Source: a virus. Taken from it: a stretch of DNA of 23,213 nucleotides. A program made the position numbers and the translations under genes. Location: positions 1 through 23,213 of IMG/VR virus record IMGVR_UViG_3300003322_000245; one strand, 5' to 3'. The notes under the pieces are model-generated. The model did not search any database, was not told where the DNA came from, and was given only the letters and a program-made list of their open reading frames with translations. Positions 1 through 23,213 of this stretch are shown in pieces. Numbering within the stretch: the stretch's first letter is position 1; each line of letters begins with the position of its first letter.

Positions 1-25
1 TAATGATTTTGTTTGAGCGTTTCGT
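1..25. repeat. Left copy of 25-bp terminal inverted repeat
   Basis: The first 25 bases equal the reverse complement of the last 25 bases of the window with no mismatch. Identity stops sharply at base 26 (TGTGG here against GCAAG on the other end). Read inward, both copies contain an ATG at offset 3 followed by codons for MILFERFV. The repeat itself is certain. Its meaning is not: it could be a true element or genome end, an inverted repeat at which an assembly broke, or an amplification artefact. Confidence 0.9.
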
Positions 26-146
26 TGTGGTCAAGGATATGGTAGTTTTGTTATGCTGCGCCCATGAAAGTAGTATGGACAGTGCTGAAACTGGTATTCC
101 ATATGGCAAATCAGTCTTGAGGCGCGGCACCATTGCTTTTGGTTGA
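3..146 (+). CDS. Doubtful 47-residue ORF starting inside the terminal repeat
   Basis: An open frame runs from an ATG inside the left terminal repeat to a TGA at 144-146. It would encode 47 residues, beginning MILFERFVVV and ending RRGTIAFG. No Shine-Dalgarno site can exist upstream because only two bases precede the ATG, so if real it is probably the 3' end of a gene continuing outside the window. I recognise no family. The stop overlaps the -35 box of the candidate promoter at 143-171, which would fit a gene ending just before a new transcription unit. It could equally be chance. Confidence 0.2.
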   Translation: MILFERFVVVKDMVVLLCCAHESSMDSAETGIPYGKSVLRRGTIAFG

Positions 147-171
147 CTAGGACGTGGATGAGGTTTAGAGT
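143..171 (+). promoter_or_regulatory. Candidate sigma70-type promoter
   Basis: TTGACT at 143-148 is followed after exactly 17 bases by TAGAGT at 166-171. These match the bacterial -35 and -10 consensus at 5 of 6 and 4 of 6 positions. Transcription would start near 178, leaving a leader of about 74 nt before the ATG at 252. It is well placed to drive the small genes at 252-750 and possibly the late operon. This is a sequence match only. Confidence 0.4.
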
Positions 172-251
172 GGAACTGCACCCTGTCGCAGTTAGACCTG
201 TTTACACGAAGGCTCTGTAGATGTAAGCGGTGCGCTGAACAAGGGAGAGAT

Positions 252-497
252 ATGGACTTCAACATCACATATAATTTTGAGCGCTCAGAAATGTTCGCTC
301 TATTTAGCTTTGCATGTGGTTCAAAAGGATTTCTAATAAGGGCTGATAGAACACCATCTAATTATAAATCTAAGCTAGATAAACAATCCGTGCATGACTT
401 AATAAATTTCTTGCAAGAAAGCCTCTTTCAAGTGAGGAATTGGGATGAAGAACGCGGTGTCACAATTCCCGTAGATATGGACAGAACAAATGATTGA
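252..497 (+). CDS. Hypothetical protein, 81 aa
   Basis: A small protein of 81 residues, mixed and fairly charged, with no signal peptide or membrane segment. I do not recognise its family. The start is supported by a purine-rich ribosome site (AAGGGAGAGAT) a few bases before the ATG and by the candidate promoter at 143-171. Its stop codon lies inside the start of the next gene (8-nt overlap, 490-497), which suggests translational coupling. Being first in the unit and next to a Cys-rich partner it could be a small regulator or accessory factor, but nothing in the sequence shows this. Confidence 0.6.
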   Translation: MDFNITYNFERSEMFALFSFACGSKGFLIRADRTPSNYKSKLDKQSVHDLINFLQESLFQVRNWDEERGVTIPVDMDRTND

Positions 498-750
498 ATA
501 TTCATACGCCGCTGGCGAAGCTACCATTCTGGGCGGAGAAATTAATCGTCAATACTCCGAAGACTGGTGCAAAGAAATGAGCCGTTGCAAACAAGCCGCT
601 CAAGGCTTTGAGCCTTACCACAAATGGATAGTAATTTCTGAAGTAAACACGGAGCGCTCAAGAAGCGTCACAGGCCTCATGTGCGGGGTATGCTTCAAAG
701 AGATGATTGTATCGGACGCGCATCGGCACAGAGATAACTTCAATGTTTGA
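490..750 (+). CDS. Small Cys-containing hypothetical protein, 86 aa
   Basis: An 86-residue protein of unknown function with four cysteines: C27 and C33 (WCKEMSRC) and a C65-x-x-C68 knuckle (LMCGVC). This arrangement could bind zinc, though four Cys alone do not prove it. The C-terminus is rich in His, Asp and Arg (DAHRHRDN). The start overlaps the end of the preceding gene by 8 nt and has no strong ribosome site of its own, so translation is probably coupled. Its 3' end overlaps the end of the convergent minus-strand muralytic gene by 11 bp (740-750), leaving no room for a terminator between them. Confidence 0.55.
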   Translation: MIEYSYAAGEATILGGEINRQYSEDWCKEMSRCKQAAQGFEPYHKWIVISEVNTERSRSVTGLMCGVCFKEMIVSDAHRHRDNFNV

Positions 751-1210
751 TAAATTCGTTATACTTCTTTATGCTCTCATCCTTTTGGGCTTTCCCCTTT
801 TCTGTGTTGTAATGTTCTTTGTAATATGACCATAAGCCGTCCACGTCTTCATGCCTAGGTAACTTTCCAGGCGTTCTCAAGTAATGAATTCGCGCCATAG
901 CGGTTGCGAAGTGCAGGTCATAAATCATCCTATCCTGTTCAGGAATTCTATTACACCCAAGATGTAAAGCCATCAAAGTTGCCATCTTATTTCGCGCGCG
1001 AATATAGTTTGTCCAAATGTCTGTATACGTGTTAGGCTGCATTTGGTATATGCCAAGAGCGCTGCCGTTCACCTGGTGAAAAAAAGTACCCCCATTTGAC
1101 TCCGCAGCACACGTGAATACGAGAAGCTCTTCGGCCTCCTTTGAATAAATTTGCAGTTTAGACAGAACTGGTTCGATAATAAGAGAACGGAACTGATTGC
1201 AATCAAACAT
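740..1210 (-). CDS. Transglycosylase-like (lysozyme-fold) phage muralytic protein
   Basis: A 156-residue protein resembling phage lytic-transglycosylase-like proteins. The core reads CAAESNGG, with E37 as the likely catalytic acid, then ALGIYQMQP (residues 51-59), the GxYQM signature typical of the SLT/lysozyme fold. The C-terminus (WSYYKEHYNTEKGKA) also fits small phage proteins of this type. It probably cleaves peptidoglycan, either as an endolysin or as a virion-associated enzyme. There is no signal peptide, so release would need a holin, and none is visible. It is the only convincing minus-strand gene. Its AAGGAT ribosome site (complement of 1218-1223) supports the start at 1210, 37 bp from the divergent terminase start. 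Muralytic activity is inferred from motifs. Confidence 0.7.
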   Translation of the reverse strand: MFDCNQFRSLIIEPVLSKLQIYSKEAEELLVFTCAAESNGGTFFHQVNGSALGIYQMQPNTYTDIWTNYIRARNKMATLMALHLGCNRIPEQDRMIYDLHFATAMARIHYLRTPGKLPRHEDVDGLWSYYKEHYNTEKGKAQKDESIKKYNEFIKH

Positions 1211-1247
1211 ATCATTTATCCTTAAATGGTTTGAGAAGGGAATCTTA

Positions 1248-1820
1248 ATGGCAAAGATTGACGCAAAAAAACTTTATTTGCAAATAAAAGAAAAAGAATC
1301 ATCGTACATTGAAAAGGTTCATTGCCCTCTAATCTTAAACGTTATGAATACAAGAGGAACTATGACTGCCTTTTGTGAAATAGCTTTAATCAGTGACGCA
1401 TTGTTTTATAAATGGCTAAGACAATATCCTATTTTTGATCGCTGCTACCAAGTTGGCAAAATGATATCCAAAGCCAACTGGGAAGCTGAAGGGGAGGCCG
1501 GCAAAGATGATGAGAACTTCAATTTGGATTACTGGCGAATCACTGGCGCATGTCGATACGGGATTGGCCGTACAAATCGTGTACGATTATCCATCGACCC
1601 AGAGGCAAACCCTTACGACCAGTACAAACAACTTGTTGGACAAGCTAACGGAGAAGAGTTCACTGCTTCCGAAATTAAGCAACTCATGGAGTCCGTTAAT
1701 ATAGGTCGTAGTGTTTACGAAACATTTAAACTGCAAGAACAGATTAATTCGATGACAGATGCCATAAGAAAAATGGAACTTAACAATGCCCACAATAGCA
1801 GCACAATTGAGAAAACTTGA
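1248..1820 (+). CDS. Probable terminase small subunit
   Basis: A 190-residue protein. Residues about 38-60 (TMTAFCEIALISDALFYKWL, then RQYP) look like the N-terminal helix-turn-helix of terminase small subunits, which bind the phage packaging site and deliver it to the large subunit. The middle part (RYGIGRTNRVRLSID) and a helical, charged C-terminus suit the oligomerisation region. A start at 1248 is preferred over an upstream non-ATG start at 1197 because AGAAGGGA precedes it at good spacing and the longer form would overlap the divergent gene. It lies three genes before the portal, while the large terminase is at the far right end. A different DNA-binding protein is possible. Confidence 0.6.
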   Translation: MAKIDAKKLYLQIKEKESSYIEKVHCPLILNVMNTRGTMTAFCEIALISDALFYKWLRQYPIFDRCYQVGKMISKANWEAEGEAGKDDENFNLDYWRITGACRYGIGRTNRVRLSIDPEANPYDQYKQLVGQANGEEFTASEIKQLMESVNIGRSVYETFKLQEQINSMTDAIRKMELNNAHNSSTIEKT

Positions 1821-1920
1821 AAAAAAGATTACCATTCCTTATGTCATAAAATTCGTTAACAGGGTTGTTGACGTCAAAGAATACGAAGAAAAGGTTATAT
1901 ACGTACACATTTGGATTTAG
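1786..1920 (+). CDS. Small ORF, 44 aa, between terminase and pre-portal genes
   Basis: An ATG at 1786, inside the end of the small terminase gene, opens a frame of 44 residues beginning MPTIAAQLRKLEKKITIPYV and ending VIYVHIWI. It stops at 1918-1920, just before the ribosome site of the next gene. It fills an otherwise empty 110-base gap in a very compact operon. The composition looks protein-like: an amphipathic, Lys-rich N-terminus followed by an alternating hydrophobic strand. No strong Shine-Dalgarno site precedes it, so expression would depend on coupling. I do not recognise the family. Confidence 0.45.
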   Translation: MPTIAAQLRKLEKKITIPYVIKFVNRVVDVKEYEEKVIYVHIWI

Positions 1921-1930
1921 GGAGAAACCA

Positions 1931-2221
1931 ATGAGCACATTATCCAAGTGGCTTAAGAAAGCCGAAAAGTTTGTATCCAATATCATTCCTCATCAACATA
2001 GCGCTGATAGACGCGCTGCCAATGCTGCGGCCGCAGAACAAATCGCATTTTATAAAGAACAAAAAGATATGATGACCAAAGAGGCCACGCGCCTTGAAGG
2101 TGAGCGCGAACAAGAAAAAAGAAGGATAGCCCAAAAACAAATTCGAAGCATGCGCAGAGCTTATCGTGCGCCTGGCTTCATGGAGTCAGCAGGGAGCGGT
2201 TTAAGCGACACAATGGGATAG
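1931..2221 (+). CDS. Small phage protein preceding the portal, 96 aa
   Basis: A 96-residue, strongly charged and probably helical protein with a central coiled-coil-like stretch (about residues 35-75, rich in Glu, Lys, Arg and Gln). It has a conserved-looking end, RAYRAPGFMESAGSGLSDTMG. Short proteins with a Gly-rich ending of this sort often sit directly before the portal gene in podovirus structural operons, where their role is not settled. A start at 1931 (AGGGAGAAACC before ATG) is preferred over an upstream start at 1865. The stop is 3 bases before the portal ATG. An accessory role in portal or head assembly is a guess from position. Confidence 0.6.
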   Translation: MSTLSKWLKKAEKFVSNIIPHQHSADRRAANAAAAEQIAFYKEQKDMMTKEATRLEGEREQEKRRIAQKQIRSMRRAYRAPGFMESAGSGLSDTMG

Positions 2222-2224
2222 AAA

Positions 2225-3859
2225 ATGAATTACATGGAAGTTGTAAAAGATGAAATGCAATATGCCGAGAATGAGCGGCTATGGAGACTATTCCGTAAGC
2301 GTTACCAAGCCGCTCAAACTGTTGCGGACTTATGGGCTTCTATTCTTGAAGCCTGCTATTACTATGCCGTGCCGTACCGAAATAGGTTCTACCGACCGAA
2401 GGAGCAGCAAGGCGAGTTCAAAGCAACCAGACTATACGATACGACAGCAGTAGAAGCAACAAAAACTTTTGTATCTAAATTACATGACGCGATGACGCCA
2501 CCACAAGTTCAATGGGGTTTTCTTTCAATTGATGAAACTTTCAACGACCTAGAAGAGGAAGAGCGTACTCAGGTTCAGCAAACGCTCGATAACTATATGC
2601 GGAAATTATTCGTTTACATACACGAATCAAATTTTGATGTGGTGATTAACGAATGCTATTTTGACCTAGCTATTGGAACATCTTGTCTTGTTGCAAACTC
2701 TTTTACGGATGAGCAGCCATTATTATTCACTTCAGTTCCCATGGACAAACTGGCTATTGAGGAATCATTTTCAGGTAGAGTAGATTCTTGGTTTCGGTAT
2801 TGGGAAGACGTTAAGATAAACGAAATTAAAGTGCGCTGGCCAAATGCAGTCTTGACACCTGAAATGATTATGCAGGTCGTTGAGAATCCAGACGCAATAT
2901 GTAGAATGCTTTATGAGGGCGTCATGTATATGCCGCATAAAGACAAACCTTATGTTTACATGGTAGGCACAGCAGAATGCCCTCTCTTGTGTGAAGAATT
3001 TGAGTCTAACCCTGGAATCGTTTGGCGATTTCAGAAGGTCAACTCAGAAGTTTTTGGCCGTGGTCCGGTCATGGATGCACTGCCATCAATGATCTCATTG
3101 AATGAGTTAGCAAGGATTGAGCTTGCCGCGGCCAACTTAAACACTTTCAAGCCTTATATGGGCTTTAGTGATGCGGTATTTAATCCGCACACATTTAAAC
3201 TTGAGCCGTTTACAGTAATCCCAATTGCACCTATTGGAGCTGGCGCACAAACTCCTTTGATTCCTTTGCCTGGTTCAGCAGATCCTAATTTTTCGCAATT
3301 GACGATTATGGACTTGCGTAACCAAATTAAATCGCTCTTGTTTAATGATGTTGTACCTAATCAATCAAGCGTACAACCACAGACTGCAACAGAGCTTATG
3401 ATAGTTCAGCAAAGCCTTGCGCAAAGAATCGGACCATTGTTCTCGCGCCTACAGCAAGAGTTCCTCTGGCCTGTAATTAAGCGATGCGCATACATTCTTG
3501 ATAAGCGTGGACTGCTGCCTTATCCCGAGATTCAAGGCGTAAAAATAAATTTCCGTTATCGCTCCCCTTTGGCGCTGGCGAAAGGCATGCAGGATATCTC
3601 ACGGTTCGCGCAATACCAGCAATTAATGCAGGGAATGTTTGGTGCCAATGCTGCGCAGATTTATATCAATTCTGGGCTTGCACCATATCTCATAGCAGAG
3701 CAAATGCAGGTAGACCCGAGATACTTAAATGCGCCGAAGAATGTCGCTAAAGTTGCTCAGCAAACACAAGACCAGCAGGATGCTATGTTAGAAGCAGCAA
3801 ACCAAGAACAACAGAATCAACAAGTGGCTAGCGCACAGACGCTAGCACAAGGAGCCTAA
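2225..3859 (+). CDS. Portal (head-to-tail connector) protein
   Basis: A 544-residue protein matching the podovirus head-tail connector family; T7 gp8 is 536 residues. The N-terminus (RLWRLFRKRYQAAQTVADLW) and the following region with RLYDTTAVEATKTFVSKLHD and LTPP-like MTPP are typical of these connectors. So is the late segment QTATELMIVQQSLAQRIGP, where the chain usually forms the long crown and stem helices. The last 40 residues are Gln/Ala-rich. Twelve copies would form the ring through which DNA is packed and ejected, docking the terminase during assembly and the gp11-like protein afterwards. Its place directly upstream of the scaffold and capsid genes supports the call. Confidence 0.9.
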   Translation: MNYMEVVKDEMQYAENERLWRLFRKRYQAAQTVADLWASILEACYYYAVPYRNRFYRPKEQQGEFKATRLYDTTAVEATKTFVSKLHDAMTPPQVQWGFLSIDETFNDLEEEERTQVQQTLDNYMRKLFVYIHESNFDVVINECYFDLAIGTSCLVANSFTDEQPLLFTSVPMDKLAIEESFSGRVDSWFRYWEDVKINEIKVRWPNAVLTPEMIMQVVENPDAICRMLYEGVMYMPHKDKPYVYMVGTAECPLLCEEFESNPGIVWRFQKVNSEVFGRGPVMDALPSMISLNELARIELAAANLNTFKPYMGFSDAVFNPHTFKLEPFTVIPIAPIGAGAQTPLIPLPGSADPNFSQLTIMDLRNQIKSLLFNDVVPNQSSVQPQTATELMIVQQSLAQRIGPLFSRLQQEFLWPVIKRCAYILDKRGLLPYPEIQGVKINFRYRSPLALAKGMQDISRFAQYQQLMQGMFGANAAQIYINSGLAPYLIAEQMQVDPRYLNAPKNVAKVAQQTQDQQDAMLEAANQEQQNQQVASAQTLAQGA

Positions 3860-3864
3860 TACGC

Positions 3865-4197
3865 ATGACAAAACCTAATCCATTTTTAGAACCAGAAAAT
3901 TATTTTGAAGGATACAAAGACAGCATTGATAAGCTAAAACAAAATCCTGAGGTCGTCGAAATAGATAAACTGTGTTATTTAGTTTTCAGAACTGAAGATG
4001 GACAGAAATTGCTTAACGAGTTTACAGAGCGTTTTATTATCCCAGGATTTGTAAACCCAATAGTTCCCCATGCAAGCAATGCTGCATTGTTTTATGAGGG
4101 ATTTAAAGAAGCATTTCGCATGATTAAAAAGTGCATCACATCTCATGAGCAGCGTATTAAAGCTGAGAGCATTAAAGCGGAGAACAAACAAGAATGA
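3865..4197 (+). CDS. Bbp19-like small phage protein, 110 aa
   Basis: A 110-residue protein with LCYLVFRTEDGQKLLNEF (residues about 37-54) followed by NAALFYEGFKEAFRMIKKCI. The pattern of a short VFxTxxGQxxLxxF element and a later F.EG.R/K helix resembles the Bbp19 domain first noted in Bordetella phage BPP-1. Those proteins lie next to portal and scaffold genes in podoviruses and have no firmly known function. It has a strong AAGGAG ribosome site five bases into the intergenic end, and its stop overlaps the scaffold start (ATGA at 4194-4197). The family call rests on remembered motifs. Confidence 0.55.
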   Translation: MTKPNPFLEPENYFEGYKDSIDKLKQNPEVVEIDKLCYLVFRTEDGQKLLNEFTERFIIPGFVNPIVPHASNAALFYEGFKEAFRMIKKCITSHEQRIKAESIKAENKQE

Positions 4198-4913
4198 GTT
4201 TACTAGCCGATGAAGCCATTACAACTGCCAATTCCACCGCACCCCAAGAAGGACAAACCCAAGCGCATACCGGTGAAACACCTTCCTGGTTTTGGGATGA
4301 AAATACCCCTGGCTCTGGCGAAAGACCATCATGGCTTCCCAGTAAATATAAATCTGCTGCTGATGTAGGTAAAGCTTATGCAGAACTAGAAAAGAGATTA
4401 GGCCAAGCTCCAAGCGAATACGATTTTTCAAAGGGTGAGACTTGGATGGAGCCAGACTATGAGCCATTTCATCATTTGGCAGATTTTGCAAAACAAAATC
4501 ATGTGCCACAAAGTGTCATGGATAAGATGCTTGAAACCGTAGGATTATACTTAGATGAATTTAAACCAGACATTGAAGAAGAAAAGGCCAAGCTCGGAGA
4601 AAAAGGAGCAGAGCGCATACAGTTACTTAATAATTGGGCAAAGTCTAACTTGTCCGAAAAAGCTTTTACCACGCTCGCAGGACATATGAGAACTGCTGAC
4701 GCTATTGAAGCACTAGAGGAAATTAGAGAGAAAATGTTGAATCAAAATACAATGGTTCCAGGAAATAATAATGCTGGAACTGGTGGCGCTTTAACTATAG
4801 AAGAGTATCGATCAGAATTAAACGCGAACTATTCTAAGTACAAAACAGACACCCATTACCGCAAAGAAATGGAGCGAAAACTCGAAGCTATTGTTACCAG
4901 ACAGAACAAGTGA
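4194..4913 (+). CDS. Capsid assembly scaffolding protein
   Basis: A 239-residue acidic, mostly helical protein. The segment RPSWLPSKYKSAADVGKAYA, followed by ELEKRLGQAPSEYDF (about residues 43-77), is characteristic of podovirus scaffolding proteins of the T7 gp9 kind. A disordered Ala/Thr/Gln-rich N-terminus and a basic C-terminal helix (residues about 200-239, RKEMERKLEAIVTRQNK) also fit; in such scaffolds the C-terminus contacts the coat protein. It should direct coat assembly into a procapsid and then leave. It lies directly before the capsid gene, coupled to the previous gene by an ATGA overlap. It is shorter than T7 gp9 (307 residues). Confidence 0.85.
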   Translation: MSLLADEAITTANSTAPQEGQTQAHTGETPSWFWDENTPGSGERPSWLPSKYKSAADVGKAYAELEKRLGQAPSEYDFSKGETWMEPDYEPFHHLADFAKQNHVPQSVMDKMLETVGLYLDEFKPDIEEEKAKLGEKGAERIQLLNNWAKSNLSEKAFTTLAGHMRTADAIEALEEIREKMLNQNTMVPGNNNAGTGGALTIEEYRSELNANYSKYKTDTHYRKEMERKLEAIVTRQNK

Positions 4914-4919
4914 TATATT
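4891..4919 (+). promoter_or_regulatory. Candidate promoter for the major capsid gene
   Basis: TTGTTA at 4891-4896 and TATATT at 4914-4919 are separated by exactly 17 bases and match the -35 and -10 consensus at 4 of 6 and 5 of 6 positions. They span the last codons of the scaffold gene and lead into a 155-base untranslated stretch before the capsid ATG. An extra promoter here would explain how the capsid protein is made in excess over portal and scaffold. It is a sequence match only. Confidence 0.4.
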
Positions 4920-5018
4920 AAATTACAGAAGTACAAGCTACGAACAGGACACCTCTCACTGAAGCCCGAAAGGATACCTTCATAAACGTGATAGCCCTAA
5001 TTAGTAATTGAGCCACCA

Positions 5019-5038
5019 TTTTCCCGACTTCGGGGAAA
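5019..5038 (+). promoter_or_regulatory. Stem-loop in the capsid leader
   Basis: TTTTCCCG and CGGGGAAA can form an 8-bp stem with one T-G wobble closed by an ACTT loop, 30 bases upstream of the capsid ATG and just before its GAGGGAT ribosome site. No T-run follows, so it is not a standard factor-independent terminator. It could be an mRNA processing or stabilising hairpin, or a weak attenuator. Confidence 0.5.
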
Positions 5039-5068
5039 AGGTAATTAATTATTTGATGAGGGATTATC

Positions 5069-5899
5069 ATGTCACAATCATTAACAGCCGTACAACAAAC
5101 TGATTTCGACGAACTCGTAAAGGCAGAATATCGCTCCAAAGGTTTCTTGCTTCGCGATTCCGTTCGCACAAAAAATGACGTAATTGGTTCAAGCGTAGAA
5201 TTTAGAAAGGTTGACCAGGTTATATCTGTGCCAACTGCATATCTTGCTGCGGTTACCATTCAAGACCCAGACTACACCAAAGTTACTTGTAATATTCAAA
5301 AGTACACAACACCTACTGCTGTAGATACTGTGCAAGAACTCACCGTTAACTTTGATGACAAAATGGAAAATGCCATGTTGGTTGGTCAAGGTATGGGTAG
5401 ACGTTCTGACCAAATCATCATCGATGCTCTAGCTGCTGACCCAGGGACTACAATTGTGGATGGCGGCACTAACTTCGATTATCTAAAGTTCACTGAAATT
5501 TATGAGAACTTCGAAAACAATGCTGTTCCTAAAGGAGAACGCTACTTAGCGCTATCTGCTCCTATGATTCGTTCAATCATGCAAGATGACCAATTCATTT
5601 CTACTTTCTACACAGAAAATAGAATTTTAGACCGTGGTTACATTCTTGAGTACTTAGGTATCAACGTTATCACCATACCTCAAATGACTGAAGGTGGCCT
5701 TCCCATTACTGGCGACATTCAAACCGCATTTGCTTGGCACAAGATGTCTACCGGTATGGCAATTGGCCATGATTTTAGAACAGAGATTAATTACTTGCCT
5801 GACAGAACCTCTTGGCTCGTCAACGGGATTTTCTCTGCTGGTGCTGTGGTTATTGATAACCGCGGTGTAATCGCAATTGACTGCGATGTATCAGTTTAA
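5069..5899 (+). CDS. Major capsid protein
   Basis: A 276-residue protein directly after the scaffold gene, with the look of a podovirus coat protein. It has an N-terminal arm, alternating strand and helix segments, a PKGERYLALSAPMIRSIM stretch (a structural feature seen in phage coat proteins), and a C-terminus ending in alternating hydrophobic strands (GAVVIDNRGVIAIDCDV). I infer the HK97 fold from gene order and family resemblance; it is not directly visible. It would form the icosahedral shell. It has its own leader with a candidate promoter and hairpin and a GAGGGAT ribosome site, which suits high expression. It is shorter than T7 gp10A (345 residues). Confidence 0.85.
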   Translation: MSQSLTAVQQTDFDELVKAEYRSKGFLLRDSVRTKNDVIGSSVEFRKVDQVISVPTAYLAAVTIQDPDYTKVTCNIQKYTTPTAVDTVQELTVNFDDKMENAMLVGQGMGRRSDQIIIDALAADPGTTIVDGGTNFDYLKFTEIYENFENNAVPKGERYLALSAPMIRSIMQDDQFISTFYTENRILDRGYILEYLGINVITIPQMTEGGLPITGDIQTAFAWHKMSTGMAIGHDFRTEINYLPDRTSWLVNGIFSAGAVVIDNRGVIAIDCDVSV

Positions 5900-5914
5900 T
5901 TAAGGAGAATAACC

Positions 5915-6748
5915 ATGGCTTTCAATCCAAATCGTTTTGTACGTGCGACTAGCGCATATAACTCTGGACGCATAACAACTTCATTTAACCCTAGCGAAAC
6001 ACCAGCATTTTCAAATGGTCCTGCTGTGTTTTCCTATGCTTCATCGACAGATACCATCGCAACAATTGGCGGAGCTAATTATTTTGCTGATGTAGTTTTG
6101 GACTTAGCAGTTGATGACATGATTATTTGTGTTGGTTCTGATGCATCGTTGATTTATCAAGTTGCAACAGTAGACAGAGACGCAGGCACGGTCACTACTC
6201 AATCCTTCACAACTGCTGGTAGCGTGGGAACATCTAATATCACCGACTTGGCTGTTACCACTGCCAAGATTGATGACTTGGCTGTTACTACTGGCAAGAT
6301 AGCGGCCAATGCCGTAACTAGCGCTAAGCTTGATGCTGCTGTATTGCAATACGCAACTGTTGCTATCACTGCCGCACAATTTAATGGTATGTATGCTGCC
6401 CCTAAATTATTAATTGCTGCACCTGGTGCAAATAAATTAATAGTTGTTGAACGTATGGTTTTAGCCATGACTTATGTGTCTGCAAACTATGCGGCTGGTG
6501 GGGTTGTAGCAGCACAGTATGACTCGACTGTACATGGCGGAGGAGTTCTAGCTACAAACTCAGAAGCTGCGGCTGATTTCCAAGCGGCGGCTAGCACTTC
6601 GTTCATGTTTAATGGTGACGTTGTTCTAGCTCCGTTCTCAACATCAGTGAATAAGGGTTTGTACTTGTCAAATGCTACTGCTGCCTTTACCACAGGTGAT
6701 AGTACGTTTGTTGCGCACATTTGGTACAAAGTTATACCTACTGTGTAA
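5915..6748 (+). CDS. Head-fibre / capsid decoration-like protein
   Basis: A 277-residue protein, close to the 280 residues of the phi29 head fibre gp8.5. The N-terminal part (residues about 1-105) looks like a small beta-domain that could sit on the capsid. Residues about 108-145 carry 10-residue repeats of the type DLAVTTAKID, DLAVTTGKIA and ANAVTSAKLD, seen in trimeric phage fibre stalks. The rest (about 146-277) is an Ala/Gly-rich beta-strand domain that may be an exposed head. It follows the capsid gene after 15 bases with an AAGGAG ribosome site, so it is likely made at comparable levels. A decoration or head-fibre role is inferred from the repeats and position; a tail attachment is not excluded. 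Confidence 0.65.
   Translation: MAFNPNRFVRATSAYNSGRITTSFNPSETPAFSNGPAVFSYASSTDTIATIGGANYFADVVLDLAVDDMIICVGSDASLIYQVATVDRDAGTVTTQSFTTAGSVGTSNITDLAVTTAKIDDLAVTTGKIAANAVTSAKLDAAVLQYATVAITAAQFNGMYAAPKLLIAAPGANKLIVVERMVLAMTYVSANYAAGGVVAAQYDSTVHGGGVLATNSEAAADFQAAASTSFMFNGDVVLAPFSTSVNKGLYLSNATAAFTTGDSTFVAHIWYKVIPTV
6245..6300 (+). repeat. 30-bp tandem repeat in the head-fibre gene
   Basis: The 26 bases from 6245 recur from 6275 with two mismatches, giving a 30-base period that equals one 10-residue stalk repeat (DLAVTTAKID / DLAVTTGKIA). A third, more diverged unit follows (ANAVTSAKLD). The near identity at DNA level suggests recent duplication or slippage, which could change stalk length. Confidence 0.8.
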
Positions 6749-6758
6749 TGGAGTATCT

Positions 6759-7355
6759 ATGGCCGAGTCTAAAGTAAGTATTATTTCTAATGCGATAACA
6801 TTGCTCGGCCATGCTCCTATATCTAGCTTGGAAAATGGCGACCAGATGGTTGTAGCCGCAGAACAAGCTTTTGATATGCTTTATCCGGCAGTTCTTGCCG
6901 AAAATAATTGGCGATTTGCAACACAGATTCAGGAATTATCTGCATCTATAGACACACCTCCTCAGCCTTGGCTCACAATTTATTTACTGCCCGCAGGATG
7001 GCTTAAAACTATTCGTGTGTACCCGAACATTTACGTTTGGGATATCTATGAGAATTCTAAAATTTACGCGCAATTTAGTGGGCAATTTTTCATGGAGTAT
7101 ATCTTTCAACCAGATATATCAAAGCTCCCTGCTCATTTTATAAAGTATTTTGTTTATGAAATTGCCGCTTATTTGGCTCTGTCTAGCGCACAAAAGGCAA
7201 ATTTCTATGCGCCAATAGAGTCTAAACGAATGGCAGCATTCGCAATGGCTGCGGCGATAGAAGCTCAAAACAGACCACAGTTTACACAATACACTTTCCC
7301 TGTTCTTGCTAACAGAAATCTCGGGACGATTATCGGGAACGTTGCTCCTTCATAA
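6759..7355 (+). CDS. Tail tubular protein A-like (T7 gp11-like adaptor)
   Basis: A 198-residue protein, nearly the length of T7 gp11 (196). It shows the family pattern: an N-terminal helix region (VSIISNAITLLGHAPISSLE) and an early W-R-F-A motif (ENNWRFATQ). It ends with a helical part carrying KYFVYEIAAYLALSSAQKA before the C-terminal tail. Such proteins form a 12-fold ring under the portal and connect it to the nozzle. A start at 6759 (GGAG five bases upstream) is preferred over an in-frame non-ATG start at 6672, which would overlap the head-fibre gene by 77 bases. The next gene follows after 8 bases. Confidence 0.8.
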   Translation: MAESKVSIISNAITLLGHAPISSLENGDQMVVAAEQAFDMLYPAVLAENNWRFATQIQELSASIDTPPQPWLTIYLLPAGWLKTIRVYPNIYVWDIYENSKIYAQFSGQFFMEYIFQPDISKLPAHFIKYFVYEIAAYLALSSAQKANFYAPIESKRMAAFAMAAAIEAQNRPQFTQYTFPVLANRNLGTIIGNVAPS

Positions 7356-7363
7356 GGACTGAA

Positions 7364-9877: not shown

Positions 9878-9879
9878 AA

Positions 9880-16723: not shown

Positions 16724-16739
16724 ATGTTAGGAGAACATC

Positions 16740-19700
16740 ATGTCACAGGTAGTGATTGACGATATAATTCCACGCACGCAACTCGTTGCTACAGGTGGAC
16801 AAACTGTATTTAATACAGACTGGACGGCCGATGAAGACACGGACGTTTTAGTATATGCGAGAGCTGATGGCGTTGAGCCAGACGATGCTACACAGCTAGT
16901 AAGCCCAAGCCTCTATGATGTTACATTTATTGGTGGTAGTGAGACTGTGCGTGTGACATTTTTGTCTGGAAGAACTGCAAATGATGTTATTACAATAGTT
17001 CGTAATACTCCCGCCGAAAGAACAAATCTTTATATCAATACGAACTTTGTTCCCTCTATGCTTAATCAGGACTTCGGGATATTAACTCTCGTTGACCAGC
17101 AAGCACAGATGTATGACACGATAGTCAACCCAGGCTATAACGTATCAGCAACTATAGGTCAAAAAGATAAAGTATTGCCAATATTAGGAGCGAATCAAAT
17201 TTGGGCGATGAATCCTGCTAATACTGCCATTATCCCTTATGATGTGCCGTCTTCGGGTGGACTTGCACCAGATAATGCAACCTACATATTGCAAGTTGCA
17301 CATAGTGATTTGCCAGATGCTCAAGCTATTGGTGCGTTAGCTAGCGGTATTTTAATAGGGACAACAACGACAGGTGTTGTTTTAAGCCGAATTCTTCAAG
17401 GTGTCTCTGATCAAACAGTTGTGAATAATGGCTCAGGAATTGGGGGAAACCCAACTGTAGGTATAGCAGATAATCCAGTTTTGCCAGGCACAGCAGGTAT
17501 GGGGATACCACAAGGAACTACAGCAGAACGCGTAGTCCCAATTCAAGGTATTGGTCTTAGATTTAATACTGATTCACAATTTATTGAATATTGGGATGGT
17601 GTAGTCTGGACTCAGCTTTCAGATAATAGCGATTTTTCAGTGCTCCCAACAGGTTTTGTAACCGTAACCACGGGTTCTGGAGATTTAAACTCTCGTCTAT
17701 TAGTTCCTACTGCAAACCAAATTAATATTACAAATACAGACGGACAAGGCAATCCTGCTTTTTCATTATCTGACACCCTCAATTTTCCTGGAACATTTAC
17801 AGTTCAGTCTACAACTGTAATAGATAAAATTATTGATGATGATACGTTTGTAACGGCAACTTCTAGCAATATTCCTACAAGTTCCTCTGTAAAGTCTTAT
17901 GTTGATAGCAGTTTAAATAGTTATGTACAGTCTGTTACCGGAACCGCTAATCAAATAGATTTTAATAATGCTGACCCACAAAATCCTGTTGGATCATTAT
18001 CTGCAACTTTAGATTTTCCAGGATCATTCACAGTTCAGTCTTCCACAGTAATTAATTCGATTATTAATGATTCGTCAATGTCGTCAGCAACAACCGATAA
18101 TCTTTCTTCAAGTGCTGCCATAAAAGCATACGTTGATTCTTTGGTTACTGGATTAAATGTCCAAGGTTCATGTGTGGCCGGTTCAACTGTGGCATTGACA
18201 GCTACCTATGCCAATGGAGTAGCAGGTGTAGGTGCAACATTAACCAATGCTGGAGCAATGGCAGCAATTTCTTTAGACGGCGTGAGTCCGACTGTAGGCC
18301 AAAGGGTGCTTATCAAGAATCAGGCATCAAGCTTACAAAACGGTATTTACACCGTTACTACTGTAGGCTCTGGCGCAGTCAACTGGGTTTTAACACGTGC
18401 TACAGATTATGATTCACCATCCGAAATAACACCTGGCGATTTGGTTATTCTAACTGGCGGTACTACGCAAGCTGAATCCTCATGGGTAGAAACTGCAACG
18501 GTTAGCACGGTTGGCGTTGATGCAATTACCTTCGTGCAATTTACCGCAAGCTTACCAGTTAATGTGCCTAGTGGGGGAACTGGCAGGACATCCTTCACGG
18601 CTTATGCACCAATCGTTGGAGGAACAACTACTACCGGAAGCCTTCAATCAATTACCTTAGGCGCCTCTGGAACTCTTTTCCAATCAGGCGGTGTAGGTGT
18701 ATTACCTGGATTTACTACAGCAGCATATCCATCAACGGCTGGCACCTCAGGTACGATGATGCGTTCAAATGGTACAAACTGGGCAAATTCAACATCAACA
18801 TTTGCCGACACTTATGCGATAAATACAATTTTGTATAATAGTTCAGCCAATACCGTTGTGGGATTAGCAACTGCCAATAGCGCAGTCTTAGTGACATCAG
18901 CGGGTGGAATCCCAAGCTTAAGCACCACATTGCCAAATATTAATATAGGAACACCAACCGCTGGCGTTTTAACAAATTGTACTGGCTTGCCAGTAGGTAG
19001 CATTACTGGTCTTGGCACTGGGGTAGCGACAGCACTTGCGGTAAATGTTGGTTCGGCAGGTGCCTTTGTAACTTTCAACGGCGCACTTGGGACGCCCTCT
19101 AGTGGCACCTTAACCAATTGTACAGGTTTACCTATAAGTAGTGGGATTACGGGATTAGGGACGGGTGTAGCTACAGCCTTGGCTGTTAATGTAGGTTCTG
19201 CTGGCGCATTCGTCACATTTAATGGCGCACTCGGAACACCATCTAGCGGAGTCCTAACAAACTGTACAGGCTTGCCTGTTGTAGGCGGAGGAACCGGACT
19301 AAGCTCCTTAAGCCAAGGCGACCTAATTTATGGAAGCGCTGCAAATACTTTTTCCATATTATCCAAAGATACGAATACTACTAGATATCTATCTAACCAA
19401 GGAACCAGCAATAATCCTTCCTGGAATCAAGTTAATTTGGCAAATGGCGTCACTGGAAATTTGCCTGTAACTAATCTGAATTCTGGTACATCGGCTAGTT
19501 CTAGTACATTTTGGCGGGGAGATGGAACCTGGGCAGCACCTAGTGGAACTGGAATATCTCAAGTTGTTATACAAACTTTTACAAGCAGTGGCACCTATAC
19601 GCCAACATCCGGCATGAAGTATTGCATAGTCGAACTTGTTGGAGGCGGTGGCGGCGGAGGAGCTACAACCGCACCCTCATCTTCACAGGTCTCTGCCGCA

Positions 19701-20207
19701 GCCGGAGGAGGTGCGGGCGGTTATTCTAGAAAGGTTATCAGTGCTGCAACGATTGGAGCATCGCAAACTGTCACCATAGGAGCCGCTGGAACGGCAGGTG
19801 CCGTCTCAGGTGGAACCGGAGGTACAGGAGGCACAACATCTTTGGGAGCAATAATGCAAGCTACTGGAGGCGTTGGTGGCTCTGGGGACGGTGTTACTAC
19901 AACAGGTTCCGTATCTTCAGGTGGTGCAGGAGGTGTCGGCTCAGGTGGTGATCTCAACTTAACAGGTTCAAGCGGTGGTTACGGATTCGGTATTGCAACA
20001 AGCTCAGTCAATATGGCAACCGGAGGTGTTGGCGGAGCAAGTCTATTAGGAGGCTCAATATCCTTGACCACAAGTGCCACGCAATCAGGAAGAGATGCAT
20101 TAAACTATGGCTCAGGTGGTGGTGGTGGGCAATCCCAGAAAAGCGGTAGTGCTGCTGCTGGTGGCGCCGGAACTAAAGGATATATGATTATCACAGAATA
20201 CATTTAA
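16740..20207 (+). CDS. Tail fibre / receptor-binding protein
   Basis: A 1155-residue modular fibre. Residues 1 to about 160 form the podovirus attachment domain ([20 protein letters not shown]). Two copies of a 65-residue unit (about 325-390 and 403-467) run from ANQI to YVDS. Residues about 472-604 are a common phage tail beta-domain ([11 protein letters not shown]... [10 protein letters not shown]... NGIYTV... WVETATV). After a GGTGRTSF linker come [15 protein letters not shown]-type repeats (about 735-847), a [15 protein letters not shown] linker, and from about 947 a glycine-rich tip ([11 protein letters not shown], many GG runs) like polyglycine receptor-binding domains. An AGGAGA site lies 8 bases before the ATG. 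It should attach to the nozzle and decide host range. Confidence 0.85.
17712..18140 (+). repeat. Two-copy 65-residue repeat in the tail fibre
   Basis: Copy 1 (17712-17909) and copy 2 (17946-18140) encode related segments from ANQI to YVDS. Both contain the cores FPGxFTVQSxTVI, a Ser/Thr-rich stretch, and K-S/A-YVDS. The period is 77-78 codons. The copies are clearly homologous but diverged in both protein and DNA, so the duplication is old. They probably extend the fibre shaft. Confidence 0.7.
19008..19277 (+). repeat. Protein-identical but codon-divergent 144-bp repeat
   Basis: Codons 19008-19133 and 19152-19277 both encode [34 protein letters not shown] or V, then LTNCTGLP. Of 42 codons, 41 encode the same residue but only 10 are identical; 31 differ synonymously. 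A partial third copy precedes them ([15 protein letters not shown], about 18948-18993). The units have a 48-codon period. Confidence 0.9.
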
Positions 20208-20268
20208 AATTACGTACATTACATTACAATAATGAAGGGAAATTTTTATTAATAAATAGGGAGATAAA

Positions 20269-20505
20269 ATGAACAGAGAATTATTAGAAAAACGCATTAT
20301 GGATATTGATAAAGAAATGACTCAGAACAAAGCGAATCAAGAAATTCTAAAAGGACATTTTGGAGAAGCTCACTATTGGCTAGGGCAACTACTTAAGGCT
20401 GAAGCCGAAGCGCAAGCTGTTACCCCCCAAGAACAATCTAATCCAACAACAGAGGAGCAACAAAATGGCGAAGCTAACAACGAGCCAGCGGAACAAGCTG
20501 CCTAA
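20269..20505 (+). CDS. Small coiled-coil-like protein, 78 aa
   Basis: A 78-residue acidic protein. The N-terminal half (residues 1-48) is a likely helix or coiled coil, with a GHFGEAHYWLGQLLKAE segment resembling small late-operon phage proteins of unknown role that carry a YWL motif. The C-terminal half is Gln/Glu/Asn/Pro-rich and probably disordered. A TAGGGAG ribosome site sits 6 bases before the ATG. The 61-base gap after the fibre gene holds only AT-rich sequence with a short TACATTACATTACA run. Its last 41 bases are shared out of frame with the next gene. No function can be assigned. Confidence 0.6.
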   Translation: MNRELLEKRIMDIDKEMTQNKANQEILKGHFGEAHYWLGQLLKAEAEAQAVTPQEQSNPTTEEQQNGEANNEPAEQAA

Positions 20506-20674
20506 CTCTGCTTTTGCTGGTAAAAACCGCTCATATCCTGTTGAAGATAGGAGTCATGCAGCAAATGCCAAGGCGCGCGCTAAACAGCAATTCAATAAGG
20601 GCAATATTTCTAAGGGCGAGCTATCAAGAATCGATAGTAAAGCTAATAAGGTTTTAAACCGAAAGGGGAAATAA
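20465..20674 (+). CDS. Small basic phage protein, 69 aa
   Basis: A 69-residue, Lys/Arg-rich protein with the recognisable start MAKLTTSQRNKLPNSAFAG and then RSYPVEDRSHAANAKARAKQ. Many phages and prophages carry small proteins of this form (LT..QRN.LP.SAFA...R.YP..D..HA.NA.AR). Their function is not established as far as I know. It starts 41 bases inside the preceding gene in another frame, with GAGG about 9 bases upstream. It could bind nucleic acid given its charge, but there is no recognisable DNA-binding fold. The next tiny gene begins one base after its stop. Confidence 0.65.
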   Translation: MAKLTTSQRNKLPNSAFAGKNRSYPVEDRSHAANAKARAKQQFNKGNISKGELSRIDSKANKVLNRKGK

Positions 20675-20675
20675 A

Positions 20676-20822
20676 ATGCCACTTGTAAAGGGAAAGAAAG
20701 CTAGTACTAAAAAAGGATTTTCTGAAAATGTTAGGCGTGAAATGCATGCAGGAAAACCACAAAATCAAGCTGTCGCTATTGCCTATAGCGAAGCAAGACG
20801 AGGCAAGGGGAAGAGAAAATGA
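20676..20822 (+). CDS. Tiny basic protein, DUF6496-like, 48 aa
   Basis: A 48-residue protein, MPLVKGKKASTKKGFSENVR onward, then REMHAGKPQNQAVAIAYSEA, ending GKGKRK. The signature ENVR.E.HAGKPQ.QAVAIA.S.A is a widespread small phage family that I associate with DUF6496, of unknown function. An AAAGGGGAA ribosome site precedes the ATG, and its stop overlaps the next start (ATGA at 20819-20822). Its high positive charge and conserved AGKPQ core point to nucleic-acid or capsid contact, but that is a guess. Confidence 0.75.
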   Translation: MPLVKGKKASTKKGFSENVRREMHAGKPQNQAVAIAYSEARRGKGKRK

Positions 20823-20962
20823 AAGGACGCGGTAAATCACCTGTTAAACAATCAAAAACGATGGTTAAGGATAGGTCTCAATATGCACCAAATTATGATG
20901 CTAAAAGACAAACTGGCATGGAATCAGCAATGATGAAGGTCGGAAAAAAAGTCAAAAAGTAA
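20819..20962 (+). CDS. Tiny basic protein, 47 aa
   Basis: A 47-residue Lys/Arg-rich protein, MKGRGKSPVKQSKTMVKDRS onward, ending MESAMMKVGKKVKK. It begins by ATGA overlap with the previous tiny gene and has AGGGGAAGAG as ribosome site, so the two are almost surely co-translated. I do not recognise a named family. The compact, basic composition matches its two neighbours and suggests they act in one process in the virion or on DNA. Confidence 0.55.
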   Translation: MKGRGKSPVKQSKTMVKDRSQYAPNYDAKRQTGMESAMMKVGKKVKK

Positions 20963-20969
20963 TCATGGA

Positions 20970-21008
20970 TGAGGCTTTAGGTTTGCCACTTCCTATCCTT
21001 TAGCCTCA
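20970..21008 (+). terminator. Weak stem-loop after the small basic genes
   Basis: TGAGGCT at 20970-20976 pairs with AGCCTCA at 21002-21008 across a 25-base loop, with a possible inner TAGG/CCTA pairing. There is no T-run on either side, so it is at best a weak or factor-dependent terminator or a processing site. It occupies most of the 61-base gap before the lipoprotein gene. Confidence 0.3.
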
Positions 21009-21023
21009 CCATTTAGGACTCTA

Positions 21024-21566
21024 ATGCTTAAAAAAATATTGCCTATTGGACTATTGATTAGCTTGGCTGCTTGTACTATTTCTCACGATATAAAGATATC
21101 AAGACCGCCATGTCTATACCCATTTAAAAATTATGATTTTACTTTATGCAGAACTTTTAAATTCAAAGTTGATGATACTCTCTATCGCGTTCATAAAGGT
21201 TTTGCTACAGATCTTGCATCTATTCCGCGAGCACTTTGGGGAATTTATTCGCCTACAAAAACCGAAACCATTCCTGCTGCTGTCATTCATGATTACTTAT
21301 ATTTTTGTCCTGGCGAGATGACAAGACGCGAGGCTGATTCTATTTTTTATGATTCTCTTATTGTCAAAGGATTTCCACGCTTCACTGCTTTCAGATATTG
21401 GATTGTAGTTCGTATTTTTGGCAGTTCACATTTTAATAAAGGAGCTTTTTGTTACCATGGCTACGCGCGAACAACAAACACAATTGGCCATATGCGAATG
21501 GCTGATGCTGCAACATCCGAGTATTTATCCGTATCTAGTCAAAATAGACAACGAGGGCAAGCGTAG
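21024..21566 (+). CDS. DUF1353 lipoprotein
   Basis: A 180-residue protein. Residues 1-17 are a lipoprotein signal peptide: a KK start, a hydrophobic core and the lipobox L14-A-A-C17. The rest matches DUF1353, seen in many phages: HKGFATDLASIPRALWG (57-73), AAVIHDYLY (85-93), READSIFYDSL and a final VRIFG. Its function is unknown. Sorting to a membrane with a phage lysis-type position might mean an envelope role such as lysis or exclusion; that is inference. T7 keeps its spanins in this interval before the large terminase. Residues about 145-180 lie over the start of the next gene and are probably outside the conserved domain. TAGGAC precedes the ATG. Confidence 0.75.
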   Translation: MLKKILPIGLLISLAACTISHDIKISRPPCLYPFKNYDFTLCRTFKFKVDDTLYRVHKGFATDLASIPRALWGIYSPTKTETIPAAVIHDYLYFCPGEMTRREADSIFYDSLIVKGFPRFTAFRYWIVVRIFGSSHFNKGAFCYHGYARTTNTIGHMRMADAATSEYLSVSSQNRQRGQA

Positions 21567-21837
21567 CGTTGGCATGCATGTTCTTGCAAAGAGGATGGGT
21601 TTACATGTCGGAGCTAGCGATTTATTTTTAGGCTTTCCTACGCAAGATTTTGCTGGGTTTTGGATGGAGATTAAGCCCGATGGTTGGAAACCTCCCAATT
21701 CAAAAAAAGCCAAACTACACTTCCAAAACCAATTGCATTTCTTAGACAAAATGTCAGGCGTAGGATATTTTACTTGTTTCGTTGTTGGCGTAGACGAAGG
21801 TATTAAAGCTTTGAAGACCTATTTAAAAGACGCTTAA
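21457..21837 (+). CDS. VRR-NUC domain nuclease
   Basis: A 126-residue protein that is essentially one VRR-NUC (PD-(D/E)XK-type) domain: the N-E-G-K-R element at 32-36, G-A-S-D55-L-F-L, E71-I-K73 and Q90-x-Q92, followed by a GYFTCFVVGV strand. D55, E71 and K73 are the likely metal-binding and catalytic residues. Stand-alone VRR-NUC proteins of phages are structure-specific nucleases that can cut Holliday-like junctions. Lying directly before and sharing one base with the large terminase start (TAATG), it may clear branched DNA for packaging. The ATG at 21457 has AAAGGAG 12 bases upstream; a TTG at 21418 is less likely. It overlaps the lipoprotein gene by 110 bases. Confidence 0.8.
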   Translation: MATREQQTQLAICEWLMLQHPSIYPYLVKIDNEGKRSVGMHVLAKRMGLHVGASDLFLGFPTQDFAGFWMEIKPDGWKPPNSKKAKLHFQNQLHFLDKMSGVGYFTCFVVGVDEGIKALKTYLKDA

Positions 21838-23153
21838 TGTATATACCTATTCCATATAGAATAAAACCAAGGCATTACCAGAGAGATTGTTTAACTGCAA
21901 TACACAAAGGATTAAACGCACTCTCTATAGTACACAGGCGAGGCGGCAAAGATACAATTTGCGTTGAAGCGTGGCTTTTGCGTTCATTGTCTCGAATTGG
22001 TACTCACGTTTATCTTTTCCCCCTTGTGCAACAAGCACGGTCGGTTATCTGGAAAGGTATGGACTATGATGGCGTGCCATTCCTATCAACCATTCCAGAC
22101 ATCCTAATAGCCAAGAAAAACGAAGCCAGGATGGAAATTGAATTGATTAATGGCTCTCGAATGGTTCTTGGAGGAAGCAATAACTATAACGGCCTTATGG
22201 GTACTAACCCAGTAACAATCATTTATTCAGAATTCAGCTTACATAACCCTTTAGCCAGGCAATACCTTAATCCCATCCTAATTCAGAATGGAGGTCTGGA
22301 GATTCTGCAATACACCCCACGAGGCAAGAATCATGGCTGGGAAGTTTTGGAATCAGTTCGCGAAAATCCTAAATACTTTATCCAGCATCTTAGCGTTAAG
22401 CAGACATTTGTTGATGACGAAATGACAATCCCTGTTATCAGTGATGAGCAGATTGAAAGCGCAAAGCGCATGGGAATGTCTGAGGAAATGATTCGTCAAG
22501 AGTTCATGTGCGATTTTGATGTTGGCAATGTAGGCGCATATTTCACACGCGAAATTTCTGACATGGAACTCGAAGGACGCATCACTGCGTTGCCTCCTAA
22601 TCCTAACTTGCCTTTGCATTCTGTTTGGGATTTAGGTGGCACTGATGCTACCGCTGGCTGGTTATTTCAGATTGAAGGTAAATACATTAACCTTCTGCAT
22701 ATCCTTCATGACTCAGGCGAAGGATTAAAGTTTTACCTTGAAAAAGCTGAAATGATTCGCAAGTCCTTTGGATGCAAATGGGGAAACCATTTTATGCCCC
22801 ATGATGTAAAACAGGGTCATCAAGGATGGGAAAGCACCGAATCTCGGTTGATGATTGCCCGCAAGCATGGCTGGTTTTTTCAAGTGACTCCGAAGGTAAA
22901 CTTCGAGGACGGCATTGAGGCGATTCGATATATCTTCCCGAAGTTGCGCATAGACAAACATAACTGTCCAATTGGTGTTCGTGCTCTCCGAGAGTACCAA
23001 CGCGAGTATGACGAATTACGCGCGTGCTATAAAAGTAGGGCTTTAGATAATTGGGCAACTCATATTGTAGATGCATTACGTTATCTAGCGGTTAATTATC
23101 GCAGGCTTTATGATATACCACAAAAGCCTGTCAAATACACCACAACTCTATAA
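21837..23153 (+). CDS. Terminase large subunit
   Basis: A 438-residue packaging motor with both domains. The ATPase half has a variant Walker A loop HRRGGK38DT and a Walker B strand VTIIYSE132F with E132 as catalytic base. An adjacent YTPRGKNHGWE segment matches the coupling motif. The nuclease half has D265 in VWDLGGTDAT, D323 in MPHDVK and D412 in THIVDALRYLA, an RNase H-like acidic set. It pumps DNA into the procapsid and cuts it at headful or specific ends. It is shorter than T7 gp19 (586) but looks complete. The putative small subunit is at the opposite end of the window. The start shares one base with the VRR-NUC stop. Confidence 0.92.
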   Translation: MYIPIPYRIKPRHYQRDCLTAIHKGLNALSIVHRRGGKDTICVEAWLLRSLSRIGTHVYLFPLVQQARSVIWKGMDYDGVPFLSTIPDILIAKKNEARMEIELINGSRMVLGGSNNYNGLMGTNPVTIIYSEFSLHNPLARQYLNPILIQNGGLEILQYTPRGKNHGWEVLESVRENPKYFIQHLSVKQTFVDDEMTIPVISDEQIESAKRMGMSEEMIRQEFMCDFDVGNVGAYFTREISDMELEGRITALPPNPNLPLHSVWDLGGTDATAGWLFQIEGKYINLLHILHDSGEGLKFYLEKAEMIRKSFGCKWGNHFMPHDVKQGHQGWESTESRLMIARKHGWFFQVTPKVNFEDGIEAIRYIFPKLRIDKHNCPIGVRALREYQREYDELRACYKSRALDNWATHIVDALRYLAVNYRRLYDIPQKPVKYTTTL

Positions 23154-23165
23154 TCAAAGCCCAGT

Positions 23166-23187
23166 CAAGAACCAAGTCGTTCTCTTG
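23166..23187 (+). other. Small hairpin after the terminase gene
   Basis: CAAGAAC can pair with GTTCTCTTG with one bulged C around a six-base loop. It ends one base before the right terminal repeat (23189). There is no T-run, so terminator function is doubtful. Nothing else is visible in the 60 bases after the terminase stop except the terminal repeat. Confidence 0.3.
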
Positions 23188-23188
23188 C

Positions 23189-23213
23189 ACGAAACGCTCA
23201 AACAAAATCATTA
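23189..23213. repeat. Right copy of 25-bp terminal inverted repeat
   Basis: This is the exact reverse complement of bases 1-25. Read inward on the minus strand it opens a 26-residue frame (23131-23211) that again begins MILFERFV and then overlaps the end of the terminase gene, so that frame is unlikely to be a gene. See the left copy for interpretations. Confidence 0.9.

What the first reader, a model, noticed from the sequence alone, without database searches (positions are those of the whole stretch)
1..23213. Perfect 25-bp inverted repeat exactly at the two ends of the window
Bases 1-25 are the reverse complement of bases 23189-23213 with no mismatch, and identity ends abruptly on both sides. 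A 25-base perfect match placed exactly at both edges is not expected by chance. It could mark the ends of a linear molecule or mobile unit. Terminal inverted repeats are known in protein-primed phages such as phi29 and PRD1, but those encode their own polymerase and terminal protein, which are absent here. It could also be an inverted repeat at which an assembly stopped, or an amplification chimera.
Basis: partly seen in the sequence, partly recalled or inferred. Interest (0 to 1): 0.7.

Follow-up and report, generated by a model that had tools for sequence, protein, structure and literature searches.

The report
Phage genome with plastid-like inverted repeats
The matching ends of this contig are most likely not the ends of a virus but the place where assembly stopped at the inner edge of a large inverted repeat which, in a family of uncultured phages, divides the genome into a big structural half and a small replication half, as in chloroplast and some herpesvirus genomes.

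Summary
In detail: bases 1-25 are the exact reverse complement of 23189-23213, and nothing matches beyond. The window is an IMG/VR contig holding only the structural half of a podovirus. Relatives share this layout. Many stop at the same two places, and several carry 99-127-bp perfect inverted repeats at their ends, lengths that look like assembler k-mers. Longer relatives read through: a large single-copy structural region (LSC, 20-24 kb), an inverted repeat (IR, 0.5-1.2 kb), then a small single-copy region (SSC, 7-12 kb) with lambda-like replication and recombination genes. The map is quadripartite, like a plastid genome, 32-36.5 kb in all. In three viruses, near-identical contigs from different samples join different pairs of single-copy ends across the same IR. 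The IRs hold a conserved 35-bp dyad site and, in many, a sigma70-type promoter pointing into the SSC. The family-level architecture is strongly supported. That the window's 25 bp is the inner edge of such an IR is inference, because the contig stops there. Flip-flop isomers are likely but unproven, since short-read assemblers may resolve such repeats arbitrarily. I found no description of a tailed phage with this architecture.

The parts
1..25 (+). Left arm of the 25-bp inverted repeat; read as the LSC-facing edge of the left IR copy
   Evidence: Exact match to the reverse complement of 23189-23213; relatives have inverted repeats in the same position
23189..23213 (-). Right arm of the 25-bp inverted repeat, starting 36 bp after the terL stop; read as the LSC-facing edge of the right IR copy
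   Evidence: in relatives the IR starts from about 100 bp before to some hundreds of bp after the terL end
26..23188 (+). Large single-copy region (LSC), the structural and packaging half of the genome
   Evidence: Gene content; same block lies between the inverted repeats in relatives
740..1210 (-). Conserved gene of family phrog_3108 (unknown function; by eye lysozyme-like), the left-edge marker of the LSC in the family
   Evidence: phrog_3108, E 9.6e-36; same place and strand in relatives
2225..3859 (+). Portal (head-to-tail connecting) protein
   Evidence: PF12236, E 6.2e-76
5069..5899 (+). Major capsid protein
   Evidence: PF19821, E 4e-46
12869..16723 (+). Internal virion protein
   Evidence: phrog_342, E 6.2e-49
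16740..20207 (+). Tail fibre protein
   Evidence: phrog_863 and phrog_6202
21837..23153 (+). Terminase large subunit (terL), the right-edge marker of the LSC; in most relatives its 3' end lies inside the IR
   Evidence: phrog_2, E 5.2e-17; 60-82% identical relatives whose contigs mostly stop right after it

Best explanation
The 25-bp repeat is the innermost visible part of a larger inverted repeat at which the short-read assembly broke, so the window is the large single-copy region of a genome with a quadripartite map: LSC (about 23.2 kb here) - IR - SSC - inverted IR. Shown in relatives, not in the window: both LSC ends meet one face of the IR and both SSC ends meet the other; the IR carries a conserved 35-bp dyad site and, in many, a sigma70-type promoter with small ORFs reading into the SSC; the SSC encodes SSB, a lambda-P-like replication protein, an exonuclease VIII homologue and, in some, RusA or a RecT-like protein. 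Inferred: the DNA circularises in the cell and replicates with the host replisome; the phage's recombination genes keep the two IR copies identical and, when an exchange resolves as a crossover, flip SSC relative to LSC, giving two isomers; the IR's role is to put the same early promoter, early genes and dyad site at both ends of the early region.
For: Contigs that stop at the same places, several with 99-127-bp perfect inverted repeats exactly at both ends; six contigs that read LSC-IR-SSC with both edges of the IR repeated inverted at the far ends; G031 with two 217-bp arms in one contig; same-virus contigs from different samples with the full IR beside LSC-left and beside LSC-right: G002/L013, G038/G039/G040, L306/L307; inverted 3' fragments of terL at the left LSC border; conserved motif in otherwise diverged IRs; promoter on the SSC-facing strand in 8 of 14 IR stretches against 0.16 expected; SSC genes. 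Summed size 32.0-36.5 kb, like the 31-38 kb of isolated distant relatives.
Against: For the window itself only 25 bp are seen, 25 is not a usual final k-mer length, and its SSC was not found. No contig holds two complete IR copies. Which SSC end joins which LSC end cannot be trusted in short-read assemblies, so isomers are not demonstrated. Read depth could not be examined. The recombination step and circularisation rest on gene content alone.
Confidence: 0.82

Rival explanations
1. Same quadripartite map but a single fixed orientation: the IR is a static duplication of the early promoter region, and the mixed linkages come only from assemblers.
For: An assembler cannot bridge a 0.5-1.2 kb repeat with short reads, so both linkages are expected even from one isomer; about 11 to 9 linkages fit chance.
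Against: IR copies are identical where both can be compared while IRs differ strongly between viruses, which implies continuing exchange between copies; exchange between inverted copies tends to invert.
Confidence: 0.3
2. Two separate molecules: LSC and SSC are different linear segments that share the same terminal repeat.
For: The assembly graph alone does not exclude it, and IR-bounded contigs look like separate units.
Against: Summed size equals that of single-molecule relatives; six contigs read LSC-IR-SSC; a packaged segment of 8-13 kb would leave a head of this size mostly empty (inference).
Confidence: 0.06
3. Terminal inverted repeats of a linear genome, as in protein-primed phages.
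For: Exact placement at both contig ends.
Against: Relatives continue past these positions; replication genes are of lambda type; the window has no replication gene.
Confidence: 0.03
4. Amplification chimera or assembly error.
For: Such chimeras make inverted repeats at contig ends.
Against: The repeat recurs at equivalent gene positions with different sequence in many contigs, with sharp borders, a conserved internal site and terL 3' duplicates.
Confidence: 0.03

Closest known systems
Plastid (chloroplast) quadripartite genomes with two structural haplotypes (PMC7145664)
   Same: LSC-IR-SSC-IR map, a gene cut by the IR border, IR copies identical, both relative orientations seen in assemblies
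   Different: No homology; IR is 0.5-1.2 kb; isomers not demonstrated here
Class D herpesvirus genomes, e.g. SalHV-1 (PMC13030845)
   Same: Virus of the same realm with a long and a short unique region, inverted repeats carrying duplicated genes, isomers by inversion of the short region
   Different: In SalHV-1 one repeat copy is terminal; here both copies lie between single-copy regions of a circular map; physical ends unknown
Halovirus PhiH invertible L-region (PMC6210493)
   Same: Tailed virus with an 11-kb segment that inverts and is flanked by repeats
   Different: There the repeats are insertion sequences; here they hold phage early promoter and genes and recur across a whole family
Pelagibacter phage HTVC010P, Methylophilales phage MEP301, Dunaliella viridis virus SI2
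   Same: Distant homologues of capsid (about 29-34% identity) and/or terL, similar genome size
   Different: No comparable inverted repeat in HTVC010P or SI2, nor in the 32 kb of MEP301 examined; terL precedes the portal in HTVC010P and MEP301

Membership tests
Quadripartite (LSC/IR/SSC/IR) genome | Two single-copy regions whose ends meet the two faces of one inverted repeat | tested here: met
   In relatives G002, G004, G005, G006, G007, G031. In the window only the LSC and 25 bp of the repeat are present.
Quadripartite (LSC/IR/SSC/IR) genome | Two complete, identical IR copies | tested here: inconclusive
   Full IR beside LSC-left and beside LSC-right in different same-virus contigs, 217 bp of both arms in G031, but never two full copies in one contig.
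Quadripartite (LSC/IR/SSC/IR) genome | Two isomers by inversion of a single-copy region | tested here: inconclusive
   Both linkages seen, but short-read assemblers can produce this from one isomer.
Protein-primed linear phage (phi29/PRD1 type) | Molecule ends at the inverted repeat | tested here: not met
   Relatives continue past it.
Protein-primed linear phage (phi29/PRD1 type) | Own DNA polymerase and terminal protein | tested here: not met
   None recognised in the window or among the SSC proteins scanned; lambda-P-like and SSB proteins instead.
Site-specific invertible segment (Mu gin, P1 cin type) | DNA invertase encoded beside the repeats | tested here: not met
   A serine recombinase homologue was found only in G001 and G009 among the contigs held.
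T7-like podovirus (Autographiviridae) | T7-like portal, tail-tube and internal virion proteins with terL last | tested here: met
T7-like podovirus (Autographiviridae) | Single-subunit RNA polymerase and direct terminal repeats | tested here: not met
   No ORF of that size in the SSCs listed; inverted repeats and a sigma70-type early promoter instead. RNA polymerase was not searched with a profile.

The most novel reading that the evidence does not exclude
The conserved 35-bp dyad site (CTGGTG-N23-CACCGG) between the terL end and the early promoter in each IR is the terminase recognition or cleavage site. The two inverted copies then let packaging start from either IR, so virions hold a mix of isomers: a tailed-phage counterpart of the repeat-coupled packaging and isomerisation of herpesviruses.
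Probability: 0.22. Interest if true: 0.88.

Novelty: new variant of a known kind. Interest (0 to 1): 0.72.

Why it matters
It points to a widespread uncultured phage lineage whose genome is split by long inverted repeats, an architecture known from plastids, the yeast 2-micron plasmid (own knowledge) and some herpesviruses but which I could not find described for tailed phages (an open-access library only). It would explain why these phages come out as 22-24-kb pieces, and it warns that an inverted repeat at contig ends need not mean a complete genome: CheckV found only 33.2% of ITR contigs with an estimate to be more than 90% complete (PMC8116208). It makes a question testable: does phage recombination keep a virus genome in two flipping forms, and does packaging use repeat-borne sites?

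Tried and rejected
(1) Search for the 25-mer in other IMG/VR contigs: none. (2) Megablast against isolated phages: none. (3) Prophage or host in GTDB genomes through the capsid profile: none. (4) Large inverted repeats in HTVC010P, MEP301 (32 of 34.8 kb), SI2, Vibrio 1.257.O, ZP6 and ct3Et533: none over 29 bp. (5) A conserved folded RNA at the IR motif: single-sequence folds show a stem in some but not all, so not claimed. (6) The motif as a physical DNA end: only L009 and L089 end inside it, too few to claim. (7) Serine recombinase as the general cause: only G001 and G009. (8) Contigs G034-G036 share SSC exonuclease and/or phrog_3657 genes but lack the capsid and the IR, so they are other phages. 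(9) Exact-pattern scan with the motif core gave two new contigs, L306 and L307.

Full report
OBSERVATION. The 25-bp perfect inverted repeat at the two window edges is real and not chance (about 5e-7 expected anywhere). The window is a whole IMG/VR contig of 23213 bases, so the edges are contig ends. It encodes a podovirus structural and packaging block: portal, head-assembly protein, capsid, two tail-tube proteins, internal virion proteins, tail fibre and, last, terL. No replication gene was recognised.

RELATIVES BREAK AT THE SAME PLACES. TerL, portal and capsid scans gave many relatives. No close isolate is known; the best capsid match among isolated phages is about 34%. Contigs of 22-25 kb recur. 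From the table I count 29 of 40 contigs with full or 5' terL that stop within 150 bp of the end of the terL match. I rebuilt 30 contigs from their fetched halves. Several have perfect inverted repeats exactly at both ends: 99 bp (G012, G013), 123 bp (G011, G021, G027), 127 bp (G022). Those lengths look like assembler k values (own knowledge) while the sequences are unrelated: the signature of contigs that stop at the innermost k-mer of a real, longer inverted repeat. The window's 25 bp is read the same way, although 25 is an unusual k. G017, one of the closest relatives, shows a shorter trace: 14 bp, with 11 extra bases at one end.

READ-THROUGH CONTIGS GIVE THE MAP. In G002, G004, G005, G006, G007 and G031 one contig contains the LSC, a stretch of 487-1193 bp, and a second region of 7-12 kb. 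The LSC-facing edge of the stretch is repeated, inverted, at the far LSC end, and its other edge is repeated, inverted, at the far end of the second region. The graph is LSC, IR, SSC, with both LSC ends on one face of the IR and both SSC ends on the other: the quadripartite map of plastid DNA. Sizes: LSC 20.3-24.1 kb, SSC 7.3-12.3 kb, IR 0.49-1.19 kb, total 32.0-36.5 kb.

SAME-VIRUS EVIDENCE. L013 1-10810 equals G002 21719-32528, and L013 10688-14855 equals the reverse complement of G002 4178-8345, both 100%. One virus thus has the full 817-bp IR plus the same SSC end joined to LSC-right in one sample and to LSC-left in another, diverging sharply at G002 8346. G019 is exactly G002's LSC without the IR. 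G038 and G040 (100% identical where they match) show the same with a 1155-bp IR, and G039 joins LSC-left to a different flank. L306 and L307 repeat the pattern: LSC-left with an exonuclease end in one, a RusA end in the other. G031 holds two 217-bp arms in one contig. Across contigs, LSC-left joins the exonuclease/phrog_3657 end of the SSC about as often as the other end (about 11 to 9, my tally). That is expected of two isomers, but equally of arbitrary assembly, so isomers are not proven.

IR CONTENT. In most relatives the IR begins inside the last codons of terL, so an inverted 3' fragment of terL lies at the left LSC border (G029, G048, G050, G055, G057, L306, L307), much as plastid IR borders cut genes. 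In the window the visible repeat starts 36 bp after terL. IR sequences diverge strongly between viruses but share a motif of about 120 bp whose core is a 35-bp dyad, CTGGTG-N23-CACCGG, often with AGAGAGTT inside. On the SSC side of it lies a sigma70-type promoter: score 11 or more of 12 in 8 of 14 IR stretches on the SSC-facing strand, none on the other, 0.16 expected in shuffles. In several IRs 1-4 small ORFs follow.

SSC CONTENT. SSB, lambda-P-like protein, exonuclease VIII homologue, a phrog_3657 protein next to it (unknown function; I take it for an annealing protein from its position), RusA in some, RecT-like in G007, serine recombinase in G001 and G009. No DNA polymerase was recognised among the proteins scanned. 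This suggests lambda-like replication of a circular form by the host replisome with phage recombination.

MECHANISM. Shown: the family's map, identical IR copies where comparable, conserved motif and promoter. Inferred: that the window belongs to this plan beyond its 25 bp; circularisation; homogenisation and flipping by recombination; the IR supplying the same early promoter at both SSC ends. Guess: the dyad as packaging site. It sits between the terL end and the early promoter, where genome ends lie in many podoviruses (own knowledge), but only two contigs (L009, L089) end inside it.

COMPARISON. Plastids have this map and two orientations (PMC7145664). Class D herpesviruses invert their short region between inverted repeats that hold duplicated genes (PMC13030845). 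Halovirus PhiH inverts an 11-kb segment flanked by insertion-sequence copies (PMC6210493). I found no tailed phage with promoter-bearing inverted repeats dividing the whole genome, but only an open-access library was searched. By CheckV's rule an inverted repeat of 20 bp or more at contig ends is a sign of a closed genome, yet only 33.2% of such contigs were more than 90% complete (PMC8116208). This window, about two thirds of a genome if its SSC and IRs resemble those of relatives, would be one such case.

Noticed in passing
25-40 and 20058-20073: A 16-bp inverted match that touches the inner end of the left arm; the other copy lies in the tail-fibre gene. About 0.06 expected by chance.
   Followed up: no
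407-420 and 1273-1288: Two perfect short palindromes near the left end, TTTCTTGCAAGAAA and one around TTATTTGCAAATAA.
   Followed up: no
21418-21837: Small protein before terL (phrog_824, unknown function) that by eye resembles VRR-NUC-type nucleases; several relatives have a RusA match in the same slot.
   Followed up: partly
G028 about 6323 and G029 about 7127 (oriented contigs; loci L183-L186): A lambda-P-like match between portal and capsid genes, away from the SSC.
   Followed up: no
G001 26108-26677 (oriented) and G009: A serine recombinase in the SSC of two relatives from the window's clade, absent from the other contigs held.
   Followed up: partly
L009 and L089 contig ends: Two different contigs end inside the conserved IR motif within a few bases of each other, which could reflect a physical DNA end.
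   Followed up: partly
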